From the NCBI GenBank assembly GCA_009777175.1, contig WRMI01000001.1:1-64000 (forward strand): a DNA stretch of 64,000 nt, given 5' to 3'. The notes under the pieces were generated by a model. It was not told the DNA's origin. It saw only the letters and a program-made list of their open reading frames with translations, and made no database searches. This document shows, piece by piece, positions 1 to 61,091 of this stretch. Within the stretch, counting starts at the first letter, position 1, and each line of letters begins with the position of its first letter. This DNA comes from Marinilabiliaceae bacterium (GTDB taxonomy: Bacteria > Bacteroidota > Bacteroidia > Bacteroidales > Marinilabiliaceae). Both the position numbers and the translations under genes were made by a program.

Positions 1-141
1 TGTATAATAAGAATAAAAATTTTTAAGATATGCCAAGAATAAATTTTGTCACAAAGAGATTTCACAAAGGACACAAAGTATTAAATATCAACATATATCA
101 ACTTGTGATCTTTGTGCATTCTTTGTGTACTTTGTGGTTGA

Positions 142-363
142 AAACACTTTTTGGAGTGGACTCAACAAAAAATAAACTTGAAGAAAAAATGATCATCAAA
201 AAATATTTTTGAAATCTTCTAATAAAAAAATTTTTTATCAACTATTATGTATAATAAGAATAAACACTTTTCGGAGTGGACTCAACAAAAAATAAACTTG
301 AAGAAAAAATGATCATCAAAAAATATTTTTGAAATCTTCTAATAAAAAAAATTTTTATCAACT
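142..363. repeat. Two near-identical ~100-bp direct repeats (142-243 and 262-363), period 120 bp
   Basis: aaacactttt(t/c)ggagtggactcaacaaaaaataaacttgaagaaaaaatgatcatc... appears twice at an exact 120-bp offset with about 2 mismatches. Confidence 0.95.
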
Positions 364-395
364 TATATAATAATATTAATAAATAATTTTAAGAT

Positions 396-1952
396 ATGCC
401 AAGAATAAATTTTAAAGCATTAACCGAAGGAAGAGAATCAAATCAAATTACTCTTCCATTTGACATAATGATTTGTCATTACTTCACAAATGGTGGGTAT
501 TTAGGAAAAGTTAAATTTCCAACAAGAAAAAATCAAAACATTTTGGAGTGGTCATCAATTTCACTACCTGATTGGAAATGGACTGGGAAACCAAGACGTA
601 ATAAAAAAGAGATGGCATTACTCATCGAATGGATTAAAAAATATGAATATGTGATAATAGAAATTGGTTGCAAGAGACTTGATTTCACTACATTTTATAA
701 ATTTCTCAAGATTTTTTACAATGAGAAGATTTTAGATAACTTCGTATTATTCAAAAAAGAGAAAACATTATTACCACTTGATATTATGCTTGTTAATTGG
801 AAAGAATTCGACTATAGAAATTTTCCACAAATTGTAGTATGCCTTGATACAAATTTAAATTTTATTGGGGTAGTAGAGGTATCTTATCCTGAAAAAACAG
901 TATTTATTGAAGAATTTAGAGGATTTGAATACAACGATATAAGTAAATGGATTATAAAATATGAAGAATATATTAAAGGACTTGCTTTTGGAAAGGTAGA
1001 GTATAACGAATTTTTATCTAAATTAGAGCATGATAATAGTAATTATGTCTATAATGAAAGTGGCAATATCATTTATGATTTCAAAATGGATTATATTGAT
1101 GAAAGTAGTCCCCGTAGCGTAATGAACTTTTGTGATCCAATACTCCAAAAGGAATTTTACGGAAATGTCTACTATTTTGGCTATAGATTTAAGAAATATG
1201 AAGAACTTAAAGATTATTATACAAAAAGCGATTTTGATATAATAAAAAGTCAATTAAAAATACAATTAAAGGAAGTAAATAGTAGGAATTGGATTGGCAA
1301 AAAATTGATAGAGAAAGCTTTAGGAAGATTAAACTCGAAAATGAAAGTTAATTCTAAAATATTTGGCGATATTAATATAATTATATTTCCAAATTTTAAG
1401 AGTAATAATTTAAATGATAAAATATCGCGTGCGGTTTGTAGGTTTGTTCGTTCATTAGATTATGCTGAATATAAAGAAATTAAAAACATACCAATGATAG
1501 AAAATCCTATACCATACGAAAAAGACTGGTATAGGAAACCGAGACCAGAGGAAGAAAAGATTTGGTTCCACGTGGACCAAATGCTCATTGATAGACGACA
1601 TTATAAAATACCTGACGAAGAGTTTGAAAAAGAAATAACAATAGTTAATAAAATAATTGATAGTTTTAATAAATGTGGCAAATTTCAAATAAATTTAATT
1701 GCTAAAGAAGAGGAAATACTTTTTAGAGTACATTTTCGGAAATATTTGAAATTTGAGATAAGTATATTCAACAAAGATGAAGATCATACAAACATACTAT
1801 TGGTAGATGAAAATATATTAACAGAAGAAAACATCAACACCTCAAATGCCACGCTTATAGAAATGATAACCAGAACCGAAGAGCTGATAAACGCCACTGG
1901 CGGAAGTGTTGATGATTATAAAATTTTCTGTTTTAAATTAATGGGAAGATAA
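396..1952 (+). CDS. Multi-module protein of unknown function; paralogous module plus C-terminal phosphoribosyltransferase-like region
   Basis: 518-aa ORF; module PQIVVCLDTNLNFIGVVEV...ISKWIIKYEEYI shared with four other ORFs here; C-term ILLVDENILTEENINTSNATLIEMI resembles a type I PRTase PRPP loop. Confidence 0.7.
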   Translation: MPRINFKALTEGRESNQITLPFDIMICHYFTNGGYLGKVKFPTRKNQNILEWSSISLPDWKWTGKPRRNKKEMALLIEWIKKYEYVIIEIGCKRLDFTTFYKFLKIFYNEKILDNFVLFKKEKTLLPLDIMLVNWKEFDYRNFPQIVVCLDTNLNFIGVVEVSYPEKTVFIEEFRGFEYNDISKWIIKYEEYIKGLAFGKVEYNEFLSKLEHDNSNYVYNESGNIIYDFKMDYIDESSPRSVMNFCDPILQKEFYGNVYYFGYRFKKYEELKDYYTKSDFDIIKSQLKIQLKEVNSRNWIGKKLIEKALGRLNSKMKVNSKIFGDINIIIFPNFKSNNLNDKISRAVCRFVRSLDYAEYKEIKNIPMIENPIPYEKDWYRKPRPEEEKIWFHVDQMLIDRRHYKIPDEEFEKEITIVNKIIDSFNKCGKFQINLIAKEEEILFRVHFRKYLKFEISIFNKDEDHTNILLVDENILTEENINTSNATLIEMITRTEELINATGGSVDDYKIFCFKLMGR

Positions 1953-1996
1953 CATGGAATTAAATATTTATAAACATAACCCAAAATTAATAATTT

Positions 1997-3649
1997 ATGA
2001 ATAAAAAATTGATGCCATTCTTTGAGTTGGCAAAACTATCGAGTAATGACACAGGGTTTGCTCAGGGTATATCAATAGTCAAAAAGTTTGGAGAACCTGA
2101 AGTAATAGTGATATTTGACCCTTGTGATGGTGAACAAAATATCAGAAATTTTCCCTACATTAGAGTTCACGATTTAGATGTTGTGGGAGAATATAATAAA
2201 GAAAAAGTTGATATAGATTCAATTAAAAAATGGACAATCAGCAATAAAGAAAAAATTGATAATCTATTTTATAACGAAATTGATAACGATATCTTTCGCT
2301 TATATGTAATGTTTTCAACAAAAGTAGATGATCTCGAATATTTTATACCTATAAAACCATGGAGAAGTGGATTATCTCTTTCTGTGTGGATTGATGAATT
2401 GGACTATTACAAATATGAAAAGATTCAAATTTCTGTTATATGTAAATGTTCAAATGACAAATTTGTTGGAGTTGTCAGTGCAATTGACCCTAAACAGTTT
2501 TTGTTTATTAAGGGATATGAAAAATATTCAAAAGAAATTGTGCAATGGGTACGAAAATATCAACAAGACATCATAAATGTTTCCAAAGGAAAAATGCAAG
2601 GACTTGATTTTGTGGGCATAGTAGCTAATGACCGTGTGTTTGAAAGTATAAATGAAACAAAGCCGCCTGACCAAGTACATGTTAATAGTAAACTCGTTTA
2701 CACGTTTGACATTAACTTTAATGATGATCATCCCGATAACATTATGTGCTTATGCGATGAAACATATAATACAGAAGTTAGTCGTGATATACATTTTGTA
2801 TCTTATAAATTTAAAGAATATTCTGAAGTTAGCGGCAACTTTTTTGACGAAAAAGAGTTTAACGATGTAAAAAGCGAATTTAGAAAACAATTGAAAGATA
2901 ATAGAAGTAAGAAAAATTGGATTGGTGAAAAGTTTATTAAACAAGCTTTAGAAAAATTAAAGTGGATTCATAAAATAGATTATGAAGAGTATAATGATAT
3001 TTGCGTCATTATTTATCCAAAGACACCAAGCCACGATAAATTAACTGACTCTATTGTGTACGAAACTCTTTCATCGGTTTACGGAGCAAATGAAATTGAA
3101 GATAAGAAAATTATGGAATTACGTTTGATTAATAACAAAGTACAAAAAGAGGATAGTTGGTATTGGCCATCAGAAGAGGGAGAATCAAATATTTGGTTTA
3201 ATGAGCAGGACTTATATCGGGAGATATTATATAGAAAAGCAAAAGAATATCTAAAAGAATATGATGGCGATGAACTGAAACTAAAAATTAAAGAGGCGAA
3301 AGAATGGGCAGAAGAACAATATGAAAAAGATAGTGAGATAGTTAATAGAATTATTAGCCGTTTCAATAATGTCGGAAAATTTGAAATAAAGGAAATTGCA
3401 GGAACCGAAGAAGTCAAATTTAGAAAGTATTTTCATGATTATTTGAGATTTGAGAATATTGAATATTTTTTTGATAAGGATATTGTCAACATATTAATAA
3501 TAGGAAAAAATATAATGACAGATGATGATATAACTACATCCAACTCCACACTTTTAGAAATGATAAAACGAACAGAGGAGCTTTTAAGAATAAAAGGCGC
3601 TAATCCGAGGGATTATAGAATAATCTGTTTTAGGTTGTTAGGAAATTAA
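1997..3649 (+). CDS. Paralogue of the 396-1952 product; C-terminal phosphoribosyltransferase-like region
   Basis: 550-aa ORF; C-term DDDITTSNSTLLEMIKRTEELLRIKGANPRDYRIICFRLLGN aligns with the 396-1952 product and with D-D-x-x-T-[TS]-G-x-T-L PRPP-loop patterns. Confidence 0.7.
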   Translation: MNKKLMPFFELAKLSSNDTGFAQGISIVKKFGEPEVIVIFDPCDGEQNIRNFPYIRVHDLDVVGEYNKEKVDIDSIKKWTISNKEKIDNLFYNEIDNDIFRLYVMFSTKVDDLEYFIPIKPWRSGLSLSVWIDELDYYKYEKIQISVICKCSNDKFVGVVSAIDPKQFLFIKGYEKYSKEIVQWVRKYQQDIINVSKGKMQGLDFVGIVANDRVFESINETKPPDQVHVNSKLVYTFDINFNDDHPDNIMCLCDETYNTEVSRDIHFVSYKFKEYSEVSGNFFDEKEFNDVKSEFRKQLKDNRSKKNWIGEKFIKQALEKLKWIHKIDYEEYNDICVIIYPKTPSHDKLTDSIVYETLSSVYGANEIEDKKIMELRLINNKVQKEDSWYWPSEEGESNIWFNEQDLYREILYRKAKEYLKEYDGDELKLKIKEAKEWAEEQYEKDSEIVNRIISRFNNVGKFEIKEIAGTEEVKFRKYFHDYLRFENIEYFFDKDIVNILIIGKNIMTDDDITTSNSTLLEMIKRTEELLRIKGANPRDYRIICFRLLGN

Positions 3650-3671
3650 TATATATAAAAAATTAAATTAT

Positions 3672-4304
3672 ATGCAAATTATAAATAAAAAAATGAAGCC
3701 ATTATTTGAAATGGCAAAAATGGTATACGATGATACAGGGATTTTGGAATCTATATTTTTAAGTAAAAAGACATCAGAACATGAAGCAAGGATAAAATTT
3801 GATCCTAGAAATGGTGAAAAAAAATCAAGAAAGTGGCCATACATTAGAGTTCACGATTTGAAAGTTTATGGAGAATATAGTAAGAAAGTTGACATTGATT
3901 CACTAATACAATGGACTAGCGACAACAGAGAAAATATAAATAATGTCTTTTATGAAAAGATTGACTTTGACGTGTTTCGTTTGTTTTTAAGATTTTCAAG
4001 AAAAATGGATGATATTGGAGATTTCATAAAAATACCAAAAACCCATAGTATGAATAGAACGAGTCTTGATATTCATATTGATACTGATTCTTATTTTGCA
4101 GTATGCAAGTCCCAGGTTTGTATTATTTGTACAAAAAATAATAACAAATTTGTTGGAATTGTCAGTGCAGAAGACCCTAAACAATTTTTGTTTATTAAGG
4201 GATATGAAAGATATGCAGAAGAAATTGTATCATGGGTATGGTTAAATCGACAAGATGTTATAGATTCTTCAAATGGAAAAAAGTATTGGTTTAGTAAGCA
4301 ATAA
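3672..4304 (+). pseudogene. 5' fragment of a third paralogue, probably frameshifted/truncated
   Basis: N-terminal ~200 aa parallel to the 1997-3649 product (KPLFEMAK...DDTG; YIRVHDL.VYGEY; DPKQFLFIKGYE.YAEEIV), then stops; similarity appears to continue in another frame (ggtttagtaagcaataac vs gggcatagtagctaatgac). Confidence 0.6.
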
Positions 4305-4562
4305 CAAATTATATGGTAAAAAATGGAGTTTTTGTCTCCCTATCCCAATACATTTATATCATTATTAAACAACAAGATAACACATTGTTGAAATTAAAAA
4401 ATCACATTTATTTTTAGTAATTTTCAAAATAATATCAGTAGAATAAAAAAAGTAATTACTTTTGTATAAAAATATAACGTTTTTGGATGGTTACGGGACT
4501 TCAACTGTTCGGAAATGTTAAAATTTAATATTTTTAGAAGTCCGAATTAAAATTTATATCAT

Positions 4563-5633
4563 ATGGAAAATTTAGAAAAGCATCTAAAGGACATTTGCAG
4601 GAAGGACAGCGATGGCACGTTTGACGATTATAATGAACGTCAGATTTCGCAAGAAATAGTTCTTCCTATTTTGTTCAACTTGGGTTGGACAATTACAGAT
4701 GCGAAGGAGGTATATCCTGAATTTCGTACCAAATTTAATTTCAGGATAGATTATGCATTGATTTTAAATGGGATACACAAAGTTCTAATTGAAGTCAAAA
4801 GAAAAAGTGTTGAATTGGATGAAAAAGCAGAGGAACAATTGGAAAAATATCTGCGGGAATACTCCAATACAAATTTTGTTTGTGTTTTAACCAATGGTTT
4901 AATGTGGAAATTTTATGTTTATAACGAAAAAGATGAACGCATAGAATTGGTATCAGTAGTGGTAATTGAAAATGCATCGGCAAGCAAAAGGTTGAGCGAC
5001 TTTTTATCAAAAGAAAAGGTTGCGAATGGCGATGCCATAAAAATTTTAAGAGAATTAAAGAAAAGCCAAACAGATCCAGAGTATGAAAAAATAATGGAAG
5101 AAGGCTGGAGCTATTTATTTAGCAACGATTTTTTGCAGGAAGAACTTACAAAATTGATAAATAACGAAGTTCTATTACTCAATGGATTTTCTGTTGGAGA
5201 AGAAGATTTGAGAAATTTTATTGGTAAGAAATTACAAGCGATCATTCCTGCCGTGATACCGCGTAAATCACAATTTAAAGGGAATTTAAGAATTATATCG
5301 TATAAAAAACCACGAAAGGTAATTATTCATACATCTTCTAAAGGTATGTTAAAATTTGGTAATATGAAGTTAGCCATAAAAGCGTTTGTTGAAGATATTT
5401 CATATGAAAATCCTAAAATTTTAGAAGACTACTATAATTCTGATGAAAATCATGGAAGATTGCATAATTACATAGCCAAATCCTTTGATGAACTAACAGA
5501 CAAAGGATCTACTGTAGAAGCGAATGGCTGGCATATAAATGTTAATTTAGAACACGAGAAGGTTTTTAAATATATTTGGGAACCTTTGTGTAAAAGAATG
5601 GGAAAGACTCCGCGATTTATTGAGTTGCCGTGA
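4563..5633 (+). CDS. HsdR N-terminal-like PD-(D/E)XK nuclease domain protein
   Basis: YNERQISQEIVLPILFNLGWT...RIDYALILNGIHKVLIEVKRKSVELDEKAEEQLEKYLREY...FVCVLTNGLMWKFY: D-(x)n-EVK core of the HSDR_N family; no helicase motifs in the C-term. Confidence 0.75.
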   Translation: MENLEKHLKDICRKDSDGTFDDYNERQISQEIVLPILFNLGWTITDAKEVYPEFRTKFNFRIDYALILNGIHKVLIEVKRKSVELDEKAEEQLEKYLREYSNTNFVCVLTNGLMWKFYVYNEKDERIELVSVVVIENASASKRLSDFLSKEKVANGDAIKILRELKKSQTDPEYEKIMEEGWSYLFSNDFLQEELTKLINNEVLLLNGFSVGEEDLRNFIGKKLQAIIPAVIPRKSQFKGNLRIISYKKPRKVIIHTSSKGMLKFGNMKLAIKAFVEDISYENPKILEDYYNSDENHGRLHNYIAKSFDELTDKGSTVEANGWHINVNLEHEKVFKYIWEPLCKRMGKTPRFIELP

Positions 5634-5673
5634 AGATCACATTTCTTTTGAGCAAACTCACAATCGTTTCGCC

Positions 5674-5718
5674 CGCTCATGCGGCTTAGTGGTCGTGCCC
5701 CACATAGCCGCATGAGCG
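5674..5718. other. GC-rich 13-bp perfect inverted repeat (cgctcatgcggct / agccgcatgagcg), 19-nt loop
   Basis: Direct reading; arms extend imperfectly to gtttcgc / gcgagac; no T-tract follows. Confidence 0.85.
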
Positions 5719-5805
5719 TGTGCGAGACATTGAAAATAAACAATTCAAAACCATTAAACCCAAAAAATTGATAATAAATAAAATAACATACAAAATAATT
5801 TTAAT

Positions 5806-6390
5806 ATGAAAAAAACCAAAAAAGAATCGCACCCTATCAATATAATGATTGATGAAAACGCACTTTACATACCTACAAAAACGAAAAAAAACACACAAAT
5901 GAAAAAGCGAAAAAAAGAATTTGATGTTAAAGATATGAAGGAAGAGGAGTTGGATATGATTTTAGAATGGTCAGAAAAATACATACCAAAAATAGTAGAT
6001 GTGTATGAAGGTCGTCTTGCAGAAGAGATATTATATGAGGCGTTTAATAAATTTCTATTTGATGACAGTTTTTTGGATAATTACAGAGAAATAGGTAAAC
6101 ATCGGACAAGGCTCCCTATCAATATAATGATCGATGAAAACGAAGTTTACATACATACAAAAACGCCACAAATTGTCGTATGCACGGATGACAATTGGGA
6201 TTTTATAGGAGTCGTTAGCATAGAAAATACAAAAGAAGCAGTATTTATTGATGACAAATATAACTATTTGCAAAAAGAAATATCACTGTGGATAGAAAAA
6301 TATAGGGAATTCCTGCAAAAAGTGGCTGATAATGAAATTGATACTACTGAATTCGTGGCTAAATTAGAGTACGATTTCAGAAATCAATAA
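5806..6390 (+). CDS. Stand-alone copy of the paralogous module (unknown function)
   Basis: LPINIMIDENEVYIHTKTPQIVVCTDDNWDFIGVVSIENTKEAVFID...ISLWIEKYREFL parallels the 396-1952 product. Confidence 0.65.
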   Translation: MKKTKKESHPINIMIDENALYIPTKTKKNTQMKKRKKEFDVKDMKEEELDMILEWSEKYIPKIVDVYEGRLAEEILYEAFNKFLFDDSFLDNYREIGKHRTRLPINIMIDENEVYIHTKTPQIVVCTDDNWDFIGVVSIENTKEAVFIDDKYNYLQKEISLWIEKYREFLQKVADNEIDTTEFVAKLEYDFRNQ

Positions 6391-6414
6391 ATAAATATAC
6401 TAAAAAATATAGAG

Positions 6415-6885
6415 ATGAAAAAGCAAAAGAACGAGAATCAAAAAAATATGGACGCAGTTTTGGAGTGGACAAAAAAATACCAGCGTGAAATAATAGATAT
6501 AGGTGAAGGTCGGCTTGACGTTGATATTTTTATAACGTTTTTAAGACTACTGAACAGAGAAGGTGCGCAAGATAGTTACATAGTATTAGGCAAACATTTG
6601 ACAAACCTGTCTATCGAAATAATGATTTATGAAAACAGAGATAACTCATATCCCAAAACGCCATTAGTTGTCGTATGCTTGGATGAGAAACGTGTTTATG
6701 CAGGCGTAGTTAGCATCGATAATACCCAATACGCAGTATTTACCGACGAAAAATACAAGTATCTACAAAACGAAATATCTTTATGGATTGGAAAATACAA
6801 ATCTGAAATTGAAAAAGTAGCTGACAATAAAATGGAGGTTAGCGAATTTGCAGTAAAATTGGAACACGATAAAACTAATAACTAA
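6415..6885 (+). CDS. Stand-alone copy of the paralogous module (unknown function)
   Basis: LSIEIMIYENRDNSYPKTPLVVVCLDEKRVYAGVVSIDNTQYAVFTDEKYKYLQNEISLWIGKYKSEI, close to the 5806-6390 product. Confidence 0.65.
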   Translation: MKKQKNENQKNMDAVLEWTKKYQREIIDIGEGRLDVDIFITFLRLLNREGAQDSYIVLGKHLTNLSIEIMIYENRDNSYPKTPLVVVCLDEKRVYAGVVSIDNTQYAVFTDEKYKYLQNEISLWIGKYKSEIEKVADNKMEVSEFAVKLEHDKTNN

Positions 6886-6889
6886 AACA

Positions 6890-7489
6890 ATGGCAAGAAC
6901 CCAATACAAAATCCAAGAGGTTGGTTTATATATCAAAGAAAAAATTGATATTTCCAAACGACCAATAGTTGATGATAAATTATCTACACTTGAAGTTATG
7001 AAAAAAGTGAAATATTTTCAACTTCATCTTGATTATAAAGAGATGTGTTATGTCATTTATGTCAATAATGCAGACAAATTGTTATCAATAATAAAAATCA
7101 GTGAGGGTAGTGATACAAATGCAACCGTAAGTATAAAACAGATTATGCAAGGCGCATTACTACAAAATGCAGTAGGTATGATATTAGTTCATAATCATCC
7201 CAGTGGAAATGAAAAGCCAAGCGACAAAGATATAAAATTGACAAATCGTGTTAGAAAGTGTGCTAAGATGTTTGATATTGAACTAATTGACCATATAATC
7301 ATAACCCCGGATGATAGTTACTCGTTTGAAGAAGATTATTCCCCCAAAAAACAAAAACAGACATTTATAGAAAATATCATAGACGAAACAGAAAAAATTG
7401 AGCGAGATATTTTAAAGAAACAACTTAAAGAAAACGAAGATTTTTATAAAAAGATGCTTGATGAAGAGCTTTTATTTGAAAGAGATTGA
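6890..7489 (+). CDS. RadC-like JAB/MPN-domain protein without an HhH N-terminus
   Basis: LLQNAVGMILVHNHPSGNEKPSDKDIKLTNRVRKCAKMFDIELIDHIIIT: HxHPSG metal-binding motif. Confidence 0.85.
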   Translation: MARTQYKIQEVGLYIKEKIDISKRPIVDDKLSTLEVMKKVKYFQLHLDYKEMCYVIYVNNADKLLSIIKISEGSDTNATVSIKQIMQGALLQNAVGMILVHNHPSGNEKPSDKDIKLTNRVRKCAKMFDIELIDHIIITPDDSYSFEEDYSPKKQKQTFIENIIDETEKIERDILKKQLKENEDFYKKMLDEELLFERD

Positions 7490-10247: not shown

Positions 10248-10530
10248 ACTCATTTACTCATTTATTACAAGGCAGGCGACCGCAAGGGTACGCCCCTACA
10301 CTTATTCACTCATTCACCCATTCACTCATTTATTACAAGGCGGGCGACCGCAAGGGTACGCCCCTACACTTATTCTCTCATTCACTCATTTATTACAAGG
10401 CGGGCGACCGCAAGGGTGCGCCCCTACACTTATTCTCTCATTCACCCATTCACTCATTTATTACAAGGCGGGCGACCGCAAGGGTGCGCCCCTACACTTA
10501 TTCTCTCATTCACCCATTCACTCATTCACT
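10248..10530. repeat. Four-copy composite tandem repeat (octamer array plus GGGCGACCGCAAGGGT(A/G)CGCCCCTACA palindrome), period ~60-70 bp
   Basis: tcactcatttattacaaggcgggcgaccgcaagggtacgcccctacacttattc recurs four times between atpD and the polyprenyl synthase. Confidence 0.95.
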
Positions 10531-23628: not shown

Positions 23629-23835
23629 ATGGCAACGATAGTTATTGATGTAGATAATCGAAGCAGTGCCTCAAAGATAATGCAGGCAATCCGCTTATTT
23701 AGTGGGGTTAGGAACGTTGTTCTTGAAAAAGATGTACGTTATCCACACTTGGATAAATCAATTCAAGAAATAAATGAGGGAAAAGTTACTCGATGTAAGT
23801 CCGTAGATGAATTAATGGATAAACTCAATTCGTAG
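23629..23835 (+). CDS. Antitoxin component of a YafQ-type pair
   Basis: Small ORF directly upstream of the YafQ/RelE-like ORF. Confidence 0.6.
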   Translation: MATIVIDVDNRSSASKIMQAIRLFSGVRNVVLEKDVRYPHLDKSIQEINEGKVTRCKSVDELMDKLNS

Positions 23836-23839
23836 AAAA

Positions 23840-24115
23840 ATGTATGAAATAGAATTTTCCAATAGTTTCAAGAAAGATTACAAGCGGGTTAAGAAGAGGG
23901 GGTTTAATAACTTGCCTTTGTTGTCCGAAGTGTTTGGTCAACTGATAGAAAAGGGATGTGTAGACAATGTTTTCCGTCCACACAAACTTGTAGGAAATTA
24001 TGCAGGGTGCTGGGAATGTCATATACAACCCGATTGGCTGTTGATTTGGAAAATTGATGAAAACTCAAAATTGATAAAGTTGATAGCCACAGGAACACAT
24101 TCTGACTTGTTTTAA
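23840..24115 (+). CDS. YafQ/RelE-family mRNA interferase toxin
   Basis: FKKDYKRVKKRG...LVGNYAGCWECHIQPDWLLIWKIDE....LIATGTHSDLF. Confidence 0.88.
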   Translation: MYEIEFSNSFKKDYKRVKKRGFNNLPLLSEVFGQLIEKGCVDNVFRPHKLVGNYAGCWECHIQPDWLLIWKIDENSKLIKLIATGTHSDLF

Positions 24116-32088: not shown

Positions 32089-32790
32089 TTATTTAATTAA
32101 ATTATTATCATAAAAACTATAATAGCGGTTATCGCTGATAATTAAATGATCCCTCAACGGAATTTCCATAATTTTTCCTGCTTCTACTAATCTGTTAGTA
32201 AGGTTAATGTCTTCGTTGCTCGGATTCGACTTTCCAGATGGATGATTATGGCAAATGACAATAGATGAAGCGTTGTTTTCGAGAGCCTTTTTCATAATAA
32301 TGCGTACATCTGCCGATGTTGACGATATTCCTCCTTTGCTAACATTATATTTTGATATTATTTTATTTGCGCGATTCAAAAATAGTACCCAAAATTCTTC
32401 GTGTTGAAGGTCACCCAAAATAGGCAAAAACAGATTAAAGATATCAAAACTATTATCAATAACAGGTGATTCAAGAACATTTTGAAAGGAGCGTCTTCGA
32501 CCTAACTCCATCGCTGCGACTATCGAAACTGCTTTGGCAATACCAACTCCATGAAAACTTTCTGTTAGTTGTTCGACGGTTGCCTTCCCTAATTCGTTCA
32601 AATTATTTCGATATTTTATCATTATTTTTTGAGCAAGCTCAACCGCAGATTCTTTGGAACTACCCGAACCAATTATTATTGCTATAAGTTCGGCATCAGA
32701 AAGTGCAAAAAAACCTTTTTGCAAAAATTTTTCGCGCGGACGATCTTCTGTGGCTAAATCTTTTATTCCATATTTGACACTTTCAGACAT
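32089..32790 (-). CDS. radC: RadC family DNA repair protein (HhH + JAB)
   Basis: DLATEDRPREKFLQKGFFALSDAELIAIIIGSG...HNHPSGKSNPSNEDINLTNRLVEAGKIMEIPLRDHLII. Confidence 0.95.
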   Translation of the reverse strand: MSESVKYGIKDLATEDRPREKFLQKGFFALSDAELIAIIIGSGSSKESAVELAQKIMIKYRNNLNELGKATVEQLTESFHGVGIAKAVSIVAAMELGRRRSFQNVLESPVIDNSFDIFNLFLPILGDLQHEEFWVLFLNRANKIISKYNVSKGGISSTSADVRIIMKKALENNASSIVICHNHPSGKSNPSNEDINLTNRLVEAGKIMEIPLRDHLIISDNRYYSFYDNNLIK

Positions 32791-52893: not shown

Positions 52894-53466
52894 ATGGATT
52901 TAATATACACTTTATACAATGATAGCCGCACGGTTTTTCGATTGAAAGATGTTGCAATGCTTATAGGCGAAACAAATTTCAATTCGTTGAATATGAAATT
53001 GAATTATTATGTTCGTACAAACAGGTTGCAAAATCCACGCAAGGGCATTTATTGTAAGGACAATTACAATTTGCAAGAATTGGCGTGCCGTATTTTTGCC
53101 CCTGCTTACATTTCGTTGGAAAATGTTTTGCAACAGGCTGGGGTTATTTTTCAGTATGACAACCGTTTGACAATCATTTCCTATCTAAGTCGTGAAATTG
53201 AAATTGATAATAGATTATTTTCTTTTCGTAAAATTAAAGATGAGTTATTAATATCTTCACAAGGAGTTGAACAAAAAGGAAATAGACTAACAATTGCCAC
53301 GCCGGAGCGTGCTTTTTTGGATATGCTTTATTTGAACGGTGCTATCTATTTTGACAATCTTAATCCGCTAAAAATAGAGATGATTGAGCAAATTTTGCCT
53401 ATTTATAATTCAAAAATTTTAACAAAACGAGTAGAAAAATTGTTTAAAAACCATGGACTTAAATAA
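52894..53466 (+). CDS. AbiEi-type antitoxin / transcriptional regulator
   Basis: MLIGETNFNSLNMKLNYYVRTNRLQNPRKGIYCK...TPERAFLDMLYLNG. Confidence 0.87.
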   Translation: MDLIYTLYNDSRTVFRLKDVAMLIGETNFNSLNMKLNYYVRTNRLQNPRKGIYCKDNYNLQELACRIFAPAYISLENVLQQAGVIFQYDNRLTIISYLSREIEIDNRLFSFRKIKDELLISSQGVEQKGNRLTIATPERAFLDMLYLNGAIYFDNLNPLKIEMIEQILPIYNSKILTKRVEKLFKNHGLK

Positions 53467-54145
53467 ACACAAATATTTAATGTTGCAAATTTTGCGGGAT
53501 ATTTATTCTGATTTAGAATTGGCTAACTCACTTGGTTTTAAAGGCGGAACAGCTTTGATGTTTTTTTACGAATTACCGCGTTTCTCAATTGACTTGGATT
53601 TCAATCTACTTAAAAATGAAAAAGAAAATGAAGTTTATCAAAAAGTAAAAACAATTTTGCTAAAATACGGAAAAATAGACGATGAGGCACAAAAGCTTTT
53701 CGGTTCCATTCTTGTTTTGAATTATGGAAGTGGAGAACGAAAATTGAAGATAGAAATTTCTAACCGTTTGCATGACAATCACTATGAAGTTAAATCGTTT
53801 ATGGGAATCAATATGGTTGTTATGAAAATTTCAGATATGTTTGCACACAAATTATGCGCATTGTTAGACAGAAACGAACTGGCAAACCGTGATGTTTTTG
53901 ACTGTTGGTTTTTTATGGAAAAACGCACTCCAATAAATAAAAATATTGTTGAAAACAGAATGAAAATGCCTTTTGCAGACTATCTGCAAAAATGTATAGA
54001 CACACTTAATAGTTTGCCCGACAAAAGTTTCTTGAACGGAATCGGCGATTTACTCGATGATAAAATGAAAAATTTTGTACGCACCAAAATACGCACCGAA
54101 ACAATAATGCTGTTAAATTTTTACAAAGCATTTCCATTATTATGA
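53453..54145 (+). CDS. AbiEii-type nucleotidyltransferase toxin
   Basis: LGFKGGTALMFFYELPRFSIDLDFNLL (GG..L......R.S.DLDF), overlaps the antitoxin by 14 bp. Confidence 0.92.
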   Translation: MDLNKHKYLMLQILRDIYSDLELANSLGFKGGTALMFFYELPRFSIDLDFNLLKNEKENEVYQKVKTILLKYGKIDDEAQKLFGSILVLNYGSGERKLKIEISNRLHDNHYEVKSFMGINMVVMKISDMFAHKLCALLDRNELANRDVFDCWFFMEKRTPINKNIVENRMKMPFADYLQKCIDTLNSLPDKSFLNGIGDLLDDKMKNFVRTKIRTETIMLLNFYKAFPLL

Positions 54146-60915: not shown

Positions 60916-60984
60916 CGTCTTAAAATTTAATGGTTGATTAATTTATTTCTTATTTTTATTTTTTTATTTTTTGTTTTTGGTTTT

Positions 60985-61091
60985 TCTATGGGCAACCGCA
61001 AGGGTACGCCCCTACATTCTTTTTATTTTTTCTACGGGCGACCGCAAGGGTACGCCCCTACATTCTTATTTACTCATTCACTCATTTACTA
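60985..61091. repeat. Two GGGC(A/G)ACCGCAAGGGTACGCCCCTACATTC units plus octamer array
   Basis: Direct reading; array runs into the stop codon of the 61089 gene. Confidence 0.9.

What the first reader, a model, noticed from the sequence alone, without database searches (positions are those of the whole stretch)
396..7489. Candidate undescribed multi-paralogue locus: repeated module, PRTase-like C-termini, HsdR_N-like nuclease and RadC/JAB protein on one strand
Seen: ORFs at 396, 1997, 3672, 5806 and 6415 share a module (roughly [IV]VC.D....F.GVVS......VFI...Y.YL..EIS.W..KY...I..V......F). Two are fused to a C-terminal extension. The locus also holds an HSDR_N-type nuclease ORF with no recognisable motor and a RadC-like JAB ORF, all on the + strand. 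Established: HSDR_N domains and RadC/JAB proteins are frequent in defence/mobile islands. Inference: this is one accessory, possibly defence or conflict, system with the module as sensor/adaptor. I cannot assign the module to a named family.
Basis: partly seen in the sequence, partly recalled or inferred. Interest (0 to 1): 0.72.

Follow-up and report, generated by a model that had tools for sequence, protein, structure and literature searches.

The report
Orphan tandem gene array in Bacteroidota
A bacterium carries five neighbouring copies of an unnamed gene family, built from a repeated unit of about 90 residues, beside a restriction-type nuclease gene and a RadC-like gene; the family was found in no other genome searched, so whether these genes work together is still unknown.

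Summary
Five + strand ORFs (396, 1997, 3672, 5806, 6415) are true paralogues (E 2.5e-40 to 3.7e-8 against the 5806 protein), beside a HSDR_N nuclease ORF (4563, PF04313 2.5e-12, no motor) and a short RadC/JAB ORF (6890, PF04002 1e-33). New here: the shared region is a tandem pair of one ~90-residue unit; the better-modelled unit is predicted as four strands and a helix. The paralogues differ by gene duplication, intragenic duplication and C-terminal loss, and evolve under purifying selection (dN/dS about 0.34-0.59). The array is AT-rich (29% GC against 36%), abuts the contig end and is preceded by a duplicated leader. It matches nothing in Pfam, NCBIfam, PADLOC, PHROGs or PDB, and no convincing relative appeared in sampled Bacteroidota genomes, IMG/VR, phages or plasmids. 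Two weak leads: the unit resembles DUF4160 (toxin family of dhiTA), the long C-termini resemble ComF-type PRTases; neither is significant. That all seven genes form one system is not supported: the nuclease stands apart, flanked by gaps and a strong hairpin; only RadC looks co-transcribed with module genes. Most likely a fast-evolving accessory (conflict or mobile-element type) array. No phenotype can be claimed.

The parts
142..368 (+). Leader of the array: 120-nt unit in 1.9 copies (98% matches), each copy with a TTG-N(17-23)-TAnnTTTG motif (178 and 298) of the kind known for Bacteroidota promoters
   Evidence: about 2% of 395-base stretches of the window hold two such motifs
4..47 (+). Second, truncated copy of the leader end and start of gene 396 (MPRINF), 91% identical to 370-413: trace of duplication at the contig end
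396..1952 (+). Long paralogue, 518 aa: two units plus C-terminal domain with VDE...TSNATL stretch
1997..3649 (+). Long paralogue, 550 aa: two units plus C-terminal domain homologous to that of 396
3672..4304 (+). Paralogue of 210 aa, 53% identical to the first 200 residues of 1997 and lacking the C-terminal domain (truncated form)
4563..5633 (+). HSDR_N nuclease-type protein, 356 aa, no motor domain; D...EVK of the PD-(D/E)xK type readable by eye (IDYALIL...VLIEVKR)
   Evidence: PF04313 E 2.5e-12, PHROG 4225 endonuclease 1.7e-15
5661..5733 (.). Strong hairpin between the nuclease gene and 5806 (folded stretch 5634-5805: -48.2 kcal/mol, z -8.0)
   Evidence: no Rfam match
5806..6390 (+). Short paralogue, 194 aa: one complete unit and a partial N-terminal one made by an internal duplication (5829-5890 against 6111-6172, 87%)
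6415..6885 (+). Short paralogue, 156 aa: one unit preceded by the helix of another; 49% identical to 5806
6890..7489 (+). RadC/JAB-domain protein, 199 aa, without the N-terminal part of the window's full-length RadC (32092-32790) and with a ~50-residue C-terminal extension; HNHPSG...PS..D present; 4 bp after 6415

Best explanation
An AT-rich, repeatedly duplicated accessory gene array of one Bacteroidota lineage. Its building block is an orphan unit of about 90 residues, usually two per protein; two paralogues carry a C-terminal domain of about 290 residues that the other three lack. Shown: homology, two-unit build, duplication within and between genes, domain loss, purifying selection, low GC, duplicated leader with promoter-like motifs. 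Inferred: the units are binding or recognition modules of a conflict- or mobile-element-type locus; the long proteins pair a recognition part with an effector- or enzyme-like C-terminus, and the short ones are variants or inhibitors of them. RadC is probably co-transcribed with 5806 and 6415. The HSDR_N nuclease is a neighbouring restriction-type gene that may act independently.
For: Paralogy; internal and inter-gene repeats; strand-helix unit in the model, pLDDT 84-92 over most of the unit; dN/dS 0.34 (5806/6415), 0.59 (1997/3672), 0.39-0.44 (pairs with 396, dS near saturation); GC 29.0% against 35.7%, no equally long stretch elsewhere in the window below 33.2%; spacing 44, 22, 258, 172, 24 and 4 bp; RadC relatives in 1926 plasmid records, 1511 of them predicted conjugative; RadC domains described from proteins of conjugative elements (PMC5512222).
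Against: No PADLOC system match beyond weak ones; no integrase, transposase or phage gene recognised beside the array; no other genome with the family, so the conflict role rests on layout and neighbours alone; the contig ends just upstream.
Confidence: 0.42

Rival explanations
1. One multi-gene defence system: module proteins sense infection, the long C-termini or RadC relay or process a signal, and the HSDR_N nuclease cuts invading DNA.
For: Same strand and contiguous; HSDR_N and RadC domains are both real; module genes lie on both sides of the nuclease.
Against: The nuclease has its own gaps, promoter-like motif (4457) and a following hairpin; co-occurrence cannot be shown because no relatives exist in the searched collections; no PADLOC system.
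Confidence: 0.13
2. Toxin-antitoxin-like array derived from DUF4160: the unit is a remote DUF4160 (DhiT toxin) domain, and short and long paralogues neutralise or replace each other.
For: A DUF4160 HMM made here prefers all five module proteins over their shuffles (2-7 of 1000 as good, controls 87-516); a unit HMM ranks DUF4160 ORFs high among 664 scored ORFs; the predicted strands-then-helix order is compatible. DUF4160/DUF2442 is an experimentally supported TA pair, dhiTA (PMC8198452).
Against: Not significant: Pfam does not report it, hhalign sees nothing, two unrelated window genes outscore the module proteins; the PPHxH motif is absent; no DUF2442 partner in the locus.
Confidence: 0.15
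3. Immunity-type array: tandem paralogues are immunity proteins accumulated beside a toxin or competition gene that lies beyond the contig end.
For: Tandem diverged paralogues, low GC, duplicated gene start at the contig edge.
Against: No immunity family matched; 500-residue members with a second domain are large for immunity proteins; upstream sequence is missing and no further copy exists in the assembly.
Confidence: 0.12

Closest known systems
DUF4160 (PF13711), toxin half of dhiTA (PMC8198452)
   Same: Similar length; strands followed by a W-bearing helix as judged from sequence; weak HMM preference for all five module proteins
   Different: No PPHxH motif, units in tandem, no DUF2442 partner, similarity not significant
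ComF-type phosphoribosyltransferases (TIGR00201)
   Same: The C-terminus of 1997 ranks first among 170 chunks of window genes against a ComF HMM made here, ahead of an apparent uracil PRTase (identified by eye); 0 of 2000 shuffles reach its score
   Different: No curated family reports it; the two paralogues match in different registers; the acidic pair of the PRPP loop is not kept
Stand-alone HSDR_N proteins annotated as type I restriction endonuclease
   Same: HSDR_N domain and no motor; similar N-terminal parts in plasmid and phage records
   Different: The C-terminal ~200 residues have no recognised relative; none of these records covers 80% of the query
RadC/JAB proteins of mobile elements
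   Same: JAB core with HNHPSG...PS..D; matches in 1926 plasmid records
   Different: About 50-residue C-terminal extension; VSIKQI where RadC proteins usually read VHPREI (from memory), so the expected acidic residue is a Gln here

Membership tests
DUF4160 (PF13711) | Score above the Pfam cut-off (23 bits) | tested here: not met
   No module ORF reported with E up to 10, although four true DUF4160 genes are found elsewhere in the genome
DUF4160 (PF13711) | PPHxH motif seen in the members of related genomes | tested here: not met
   Absent from all units
DUF4160 (PF13711) | Same fold | not testable with these tools
dhiTA toxin-antitoxin system | DUF2442 partner gene next to the toxin | tested here: not met
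   No DUF2442 match in the seven ORFs
Type I phosphoribosyltransferase (ComF-like) C-terminus | PRPP-loop motif with an acidic pair, such as [ILV]DD[VI]xTTGxT | tested here: not met
   396 reads LLVDENILTEENINTSNATL, 1997 reads LIIGKNIMTDDDITTSNSTL
Type I phosphoribosyltransferase (ComF-like) C-terminus | Detectable profile similarity | tested here: inconclusive
   8.4 bits, rank 1 of 170 chunks, 0 of 2000 shuffles as good for 1997, but 27-35 of 2000 for 396 and another register; no Pfam match
HSDR_N (PF04313) nuclease | Domain above the curated cut-off | tested here: met
   47.5 bits against 25.1
Type I restriction enzyme | HsdR motor with HsdM and HsdS genes | tested here: not met
   No motor domain in 4563 and no HsdM or HsdS family among the seven ORFs
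RadC-like JAB | RadC domain above cut-off and HxHPSG...S..D residues | tested here: met
   116 bits against 22.1; HNHPSGNEKPSDKD
Known anti-phage defence system (PADLOC) | Convincing match to a system's components | tested here: not met
   Only weak matches of 4563, of 6890 and of a lysine-rich N-terminal stretch of 5806

The most novel reading that the evidence does not exclude
A new protein family whose repeated strand-helix unit is a recognition module, duplicated and recombined into a set of variant sensors or inhibitors with a degenerate PRTase-like effector end, in a conflict system that also uses RadC and a motorless HSDR_N nuclease.
Probability: 0.08. Interest if true: 0.75.

Novelty: new variant of a known kind. 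Interest (0 to 1): 0.33.

Why it matters
If relatives turn up, this adds an unnamed repeat-built family to the proteins of accessory islands and another context for RadC, whose function is disputed (PMC5512222). On its own it is a well-defined orphan family with visible steps of duplication and domain loss, a useful query for metagenomes, but without a demonstrable function.

Tried and rejected
Relatives: the matches L012 (glycosyltransferase-like by inspection), L014, L020 (frame with stops) and L091 (aldo/keto-reductase-like by inspection) were read as chance. Profile comparison of the module with DUF4160 by hhalign gave nothing. The full-length model of 1997 was too poor to use (pLDDT 44.5). 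Foldseek with the 5806 model: best E 0.38 (PDB) and 0.22 (BFVD), not significant. PDB sequence searches: nothing significant. Empty-site comparison with the only other genome of the genus failed: the nitrilase-like neighbour lies near a contig end there and has another neighbour on its other side. The hairpin has no Rfam match and its exact pattern is absent from IMG/VR. Remnants of modules in the gaps: none convincing apart from the duplicated gene start. A profile of all five modules was too variable for a pattern scan of IMG/VR.

Full report
What is there. The window is the first 64 kb of a 172 kb contig of a 3.09 Mb, 82% complete genome, read as Bacteroidota from its gene content; no taxon name was available. 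Seven + strand ORFs fill 396-7489. Five share a region that is certainly homologous (E 2.5e-40 to 3.7e-8), and the rest of the assembly holds no further copy. The ORF at 4563 has an HSDR_N domain and no motor; the ORF at 6890 is a RadC/JAB protein.

Anatomy of the module. Aligning N- and C-terminal halves shows one unit of about 90 residues occurring twice in 396, 1997 and 3672, once and in part in 5806, and once, preceded by the helix of another, in 6415. Both halves end in a helix with a conserved W followed by a stretch with F. AlphaFold with the five rows models the second unit of 5806 as four strands and a long helix, with pLDDT 84-92 over most of it. The copies arose in steps: 5829-5890 and 6111-6172 are 87% identical within one gene; 2430-2594 and 4117-4281 are 78% identical between 1997 and 3672; and 3672 stops where the long C-terminal domain would begin. 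Synonymous and non-synonymous changes (dN/dS 0.34 for 5806/6415, 0.59 for 1997/3672 and about 0.39-0.44 for pairs with 396, the last with dS near saturation) indicate purifying selection, so these look like working genes.

Surroundings. The locus is 29.0% GC against 35.7% for the rest, and no equally long stretch elsewhere in the window falls below 33.2%. Gene spacing splits it into 396-1997-3672 (gaps of 44 and 22 bp), 4563 alone (258 bp before, 172 bp after), and 5806-6415-6890 (24 and 4 bp). The gap before 5806 holds a hairpin with z -8.0. Upstream of 396 a 120-nt unit is duplicated at 98%, with a TTG...TAnnTTTG motif in each copy; about 2% of 395-base stretches of the window hold two such motifs. 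Bases 4-47 repeat the leader end and start of gene 396. The array has therefore been duplicating at its 5' side and may continue beyond the contig end.

Relatives. No convincing relative was found in the 70 other genomes of the family, in samples of 393 genomes of the order, 396 of the phylum and 395 of the class (the samples overlap and include the window's own genome), in two pattern scans of GTDB species genomes, in four pattern scans of IMG/VR with module proteins, or in phage and plasmid records. The pattern scans reach close relatives only, and metagenomes were not searched. No Pfam, NCBIfam, PADLOC, PHROGs or PDB family fits the module.

Two leads on identity. First, the unit may be a remote DUF4160. 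A DUF4160 HMM made here from proteins of related genomes prefers all five module proteins to their shuffles (2-7 of 1000 as good; control sequences 87-516), and a unit HMM ranks DUF4160 ORFs high, with the caveat that many decoy ORFs there are not genes. But hhalign sees nothing, Pfam does not list it, two unrelated window genes score higher, and the PPHxH motif is missing. DUF4160 is the toxin half of dhiTA in Dickeya dadantii (PMC8198452). Second, the C-terminus of 1997 ranks first against a ComF HMM among 170 chunks of window genes, beside an apparent uracil PRTase recognised by eye, and no shuffle of 2000 equals it; but the two paralogues match in different registers and the PRPP motif is not met. 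Both remain leads, not identifications.

How it most likely works. I commit to an accessory, conflict- or mobile-element-type array in which the units bind something (a protein or ligand) and are varied by duplication, the long members joining this to a second domain, with RadC co-transcribed with the short module genes. RadC domains are described from proteins of conjugative elements, with a proposed nucleic-acid-processing role (PMC5512222). The nuclease may be an unrelated neighbour. Shown: homology, duplication, selection, layout. Inferred: binding role, conflict role, co-transcription.

Verdict. The single-system interpretation is not supported beyond proximity. The family is unnamed and was seen in one genome only. 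Function cannot be settled from this one occurrence.

Noticed in passing
window 5661-5733: Long G+C-rich hairpin (CGCTCATGCGGCT...AGCCGCATGAGCG) between the nuclease gene and 5806, z -8.0, no Rfam match, not in IMG/VR as an exact pattern, no second copy in the window.
   Followed up: partly
window 52894-54145: AbiE-like pair: an AbiEii nucleotidyltransferase toxin (53453-54145, PF08843 9.1e-21) preceded by an ORF without a Pfam match that may be its antitoxin.
   Followed up: partly
window 23629-24115: YafQ-type toxin gene (23840-24115, PF15738 9.8e-29) with a small ORF just upstream, probably its antitoxin.
   Followed up: partly
window 10251-10526 and 60974-61072: Tandem arrays sharing GCGACCGCAAGGGTACGCCCCTACA-type units, intergenic, at two places of the window.
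   Followed up: no
window 32092-32790: A second, full-length RadC gene lies in the same window, 32% identical to the short one at 6890 where they align.
   Followed up: partly
G000 contigs C2, C25 and C32 (L027, L049, L053, L054): The genome holds four true DUF4160 genes (E 4.7e-23 to 7.5e-19), none near the array.
   Followed up: no
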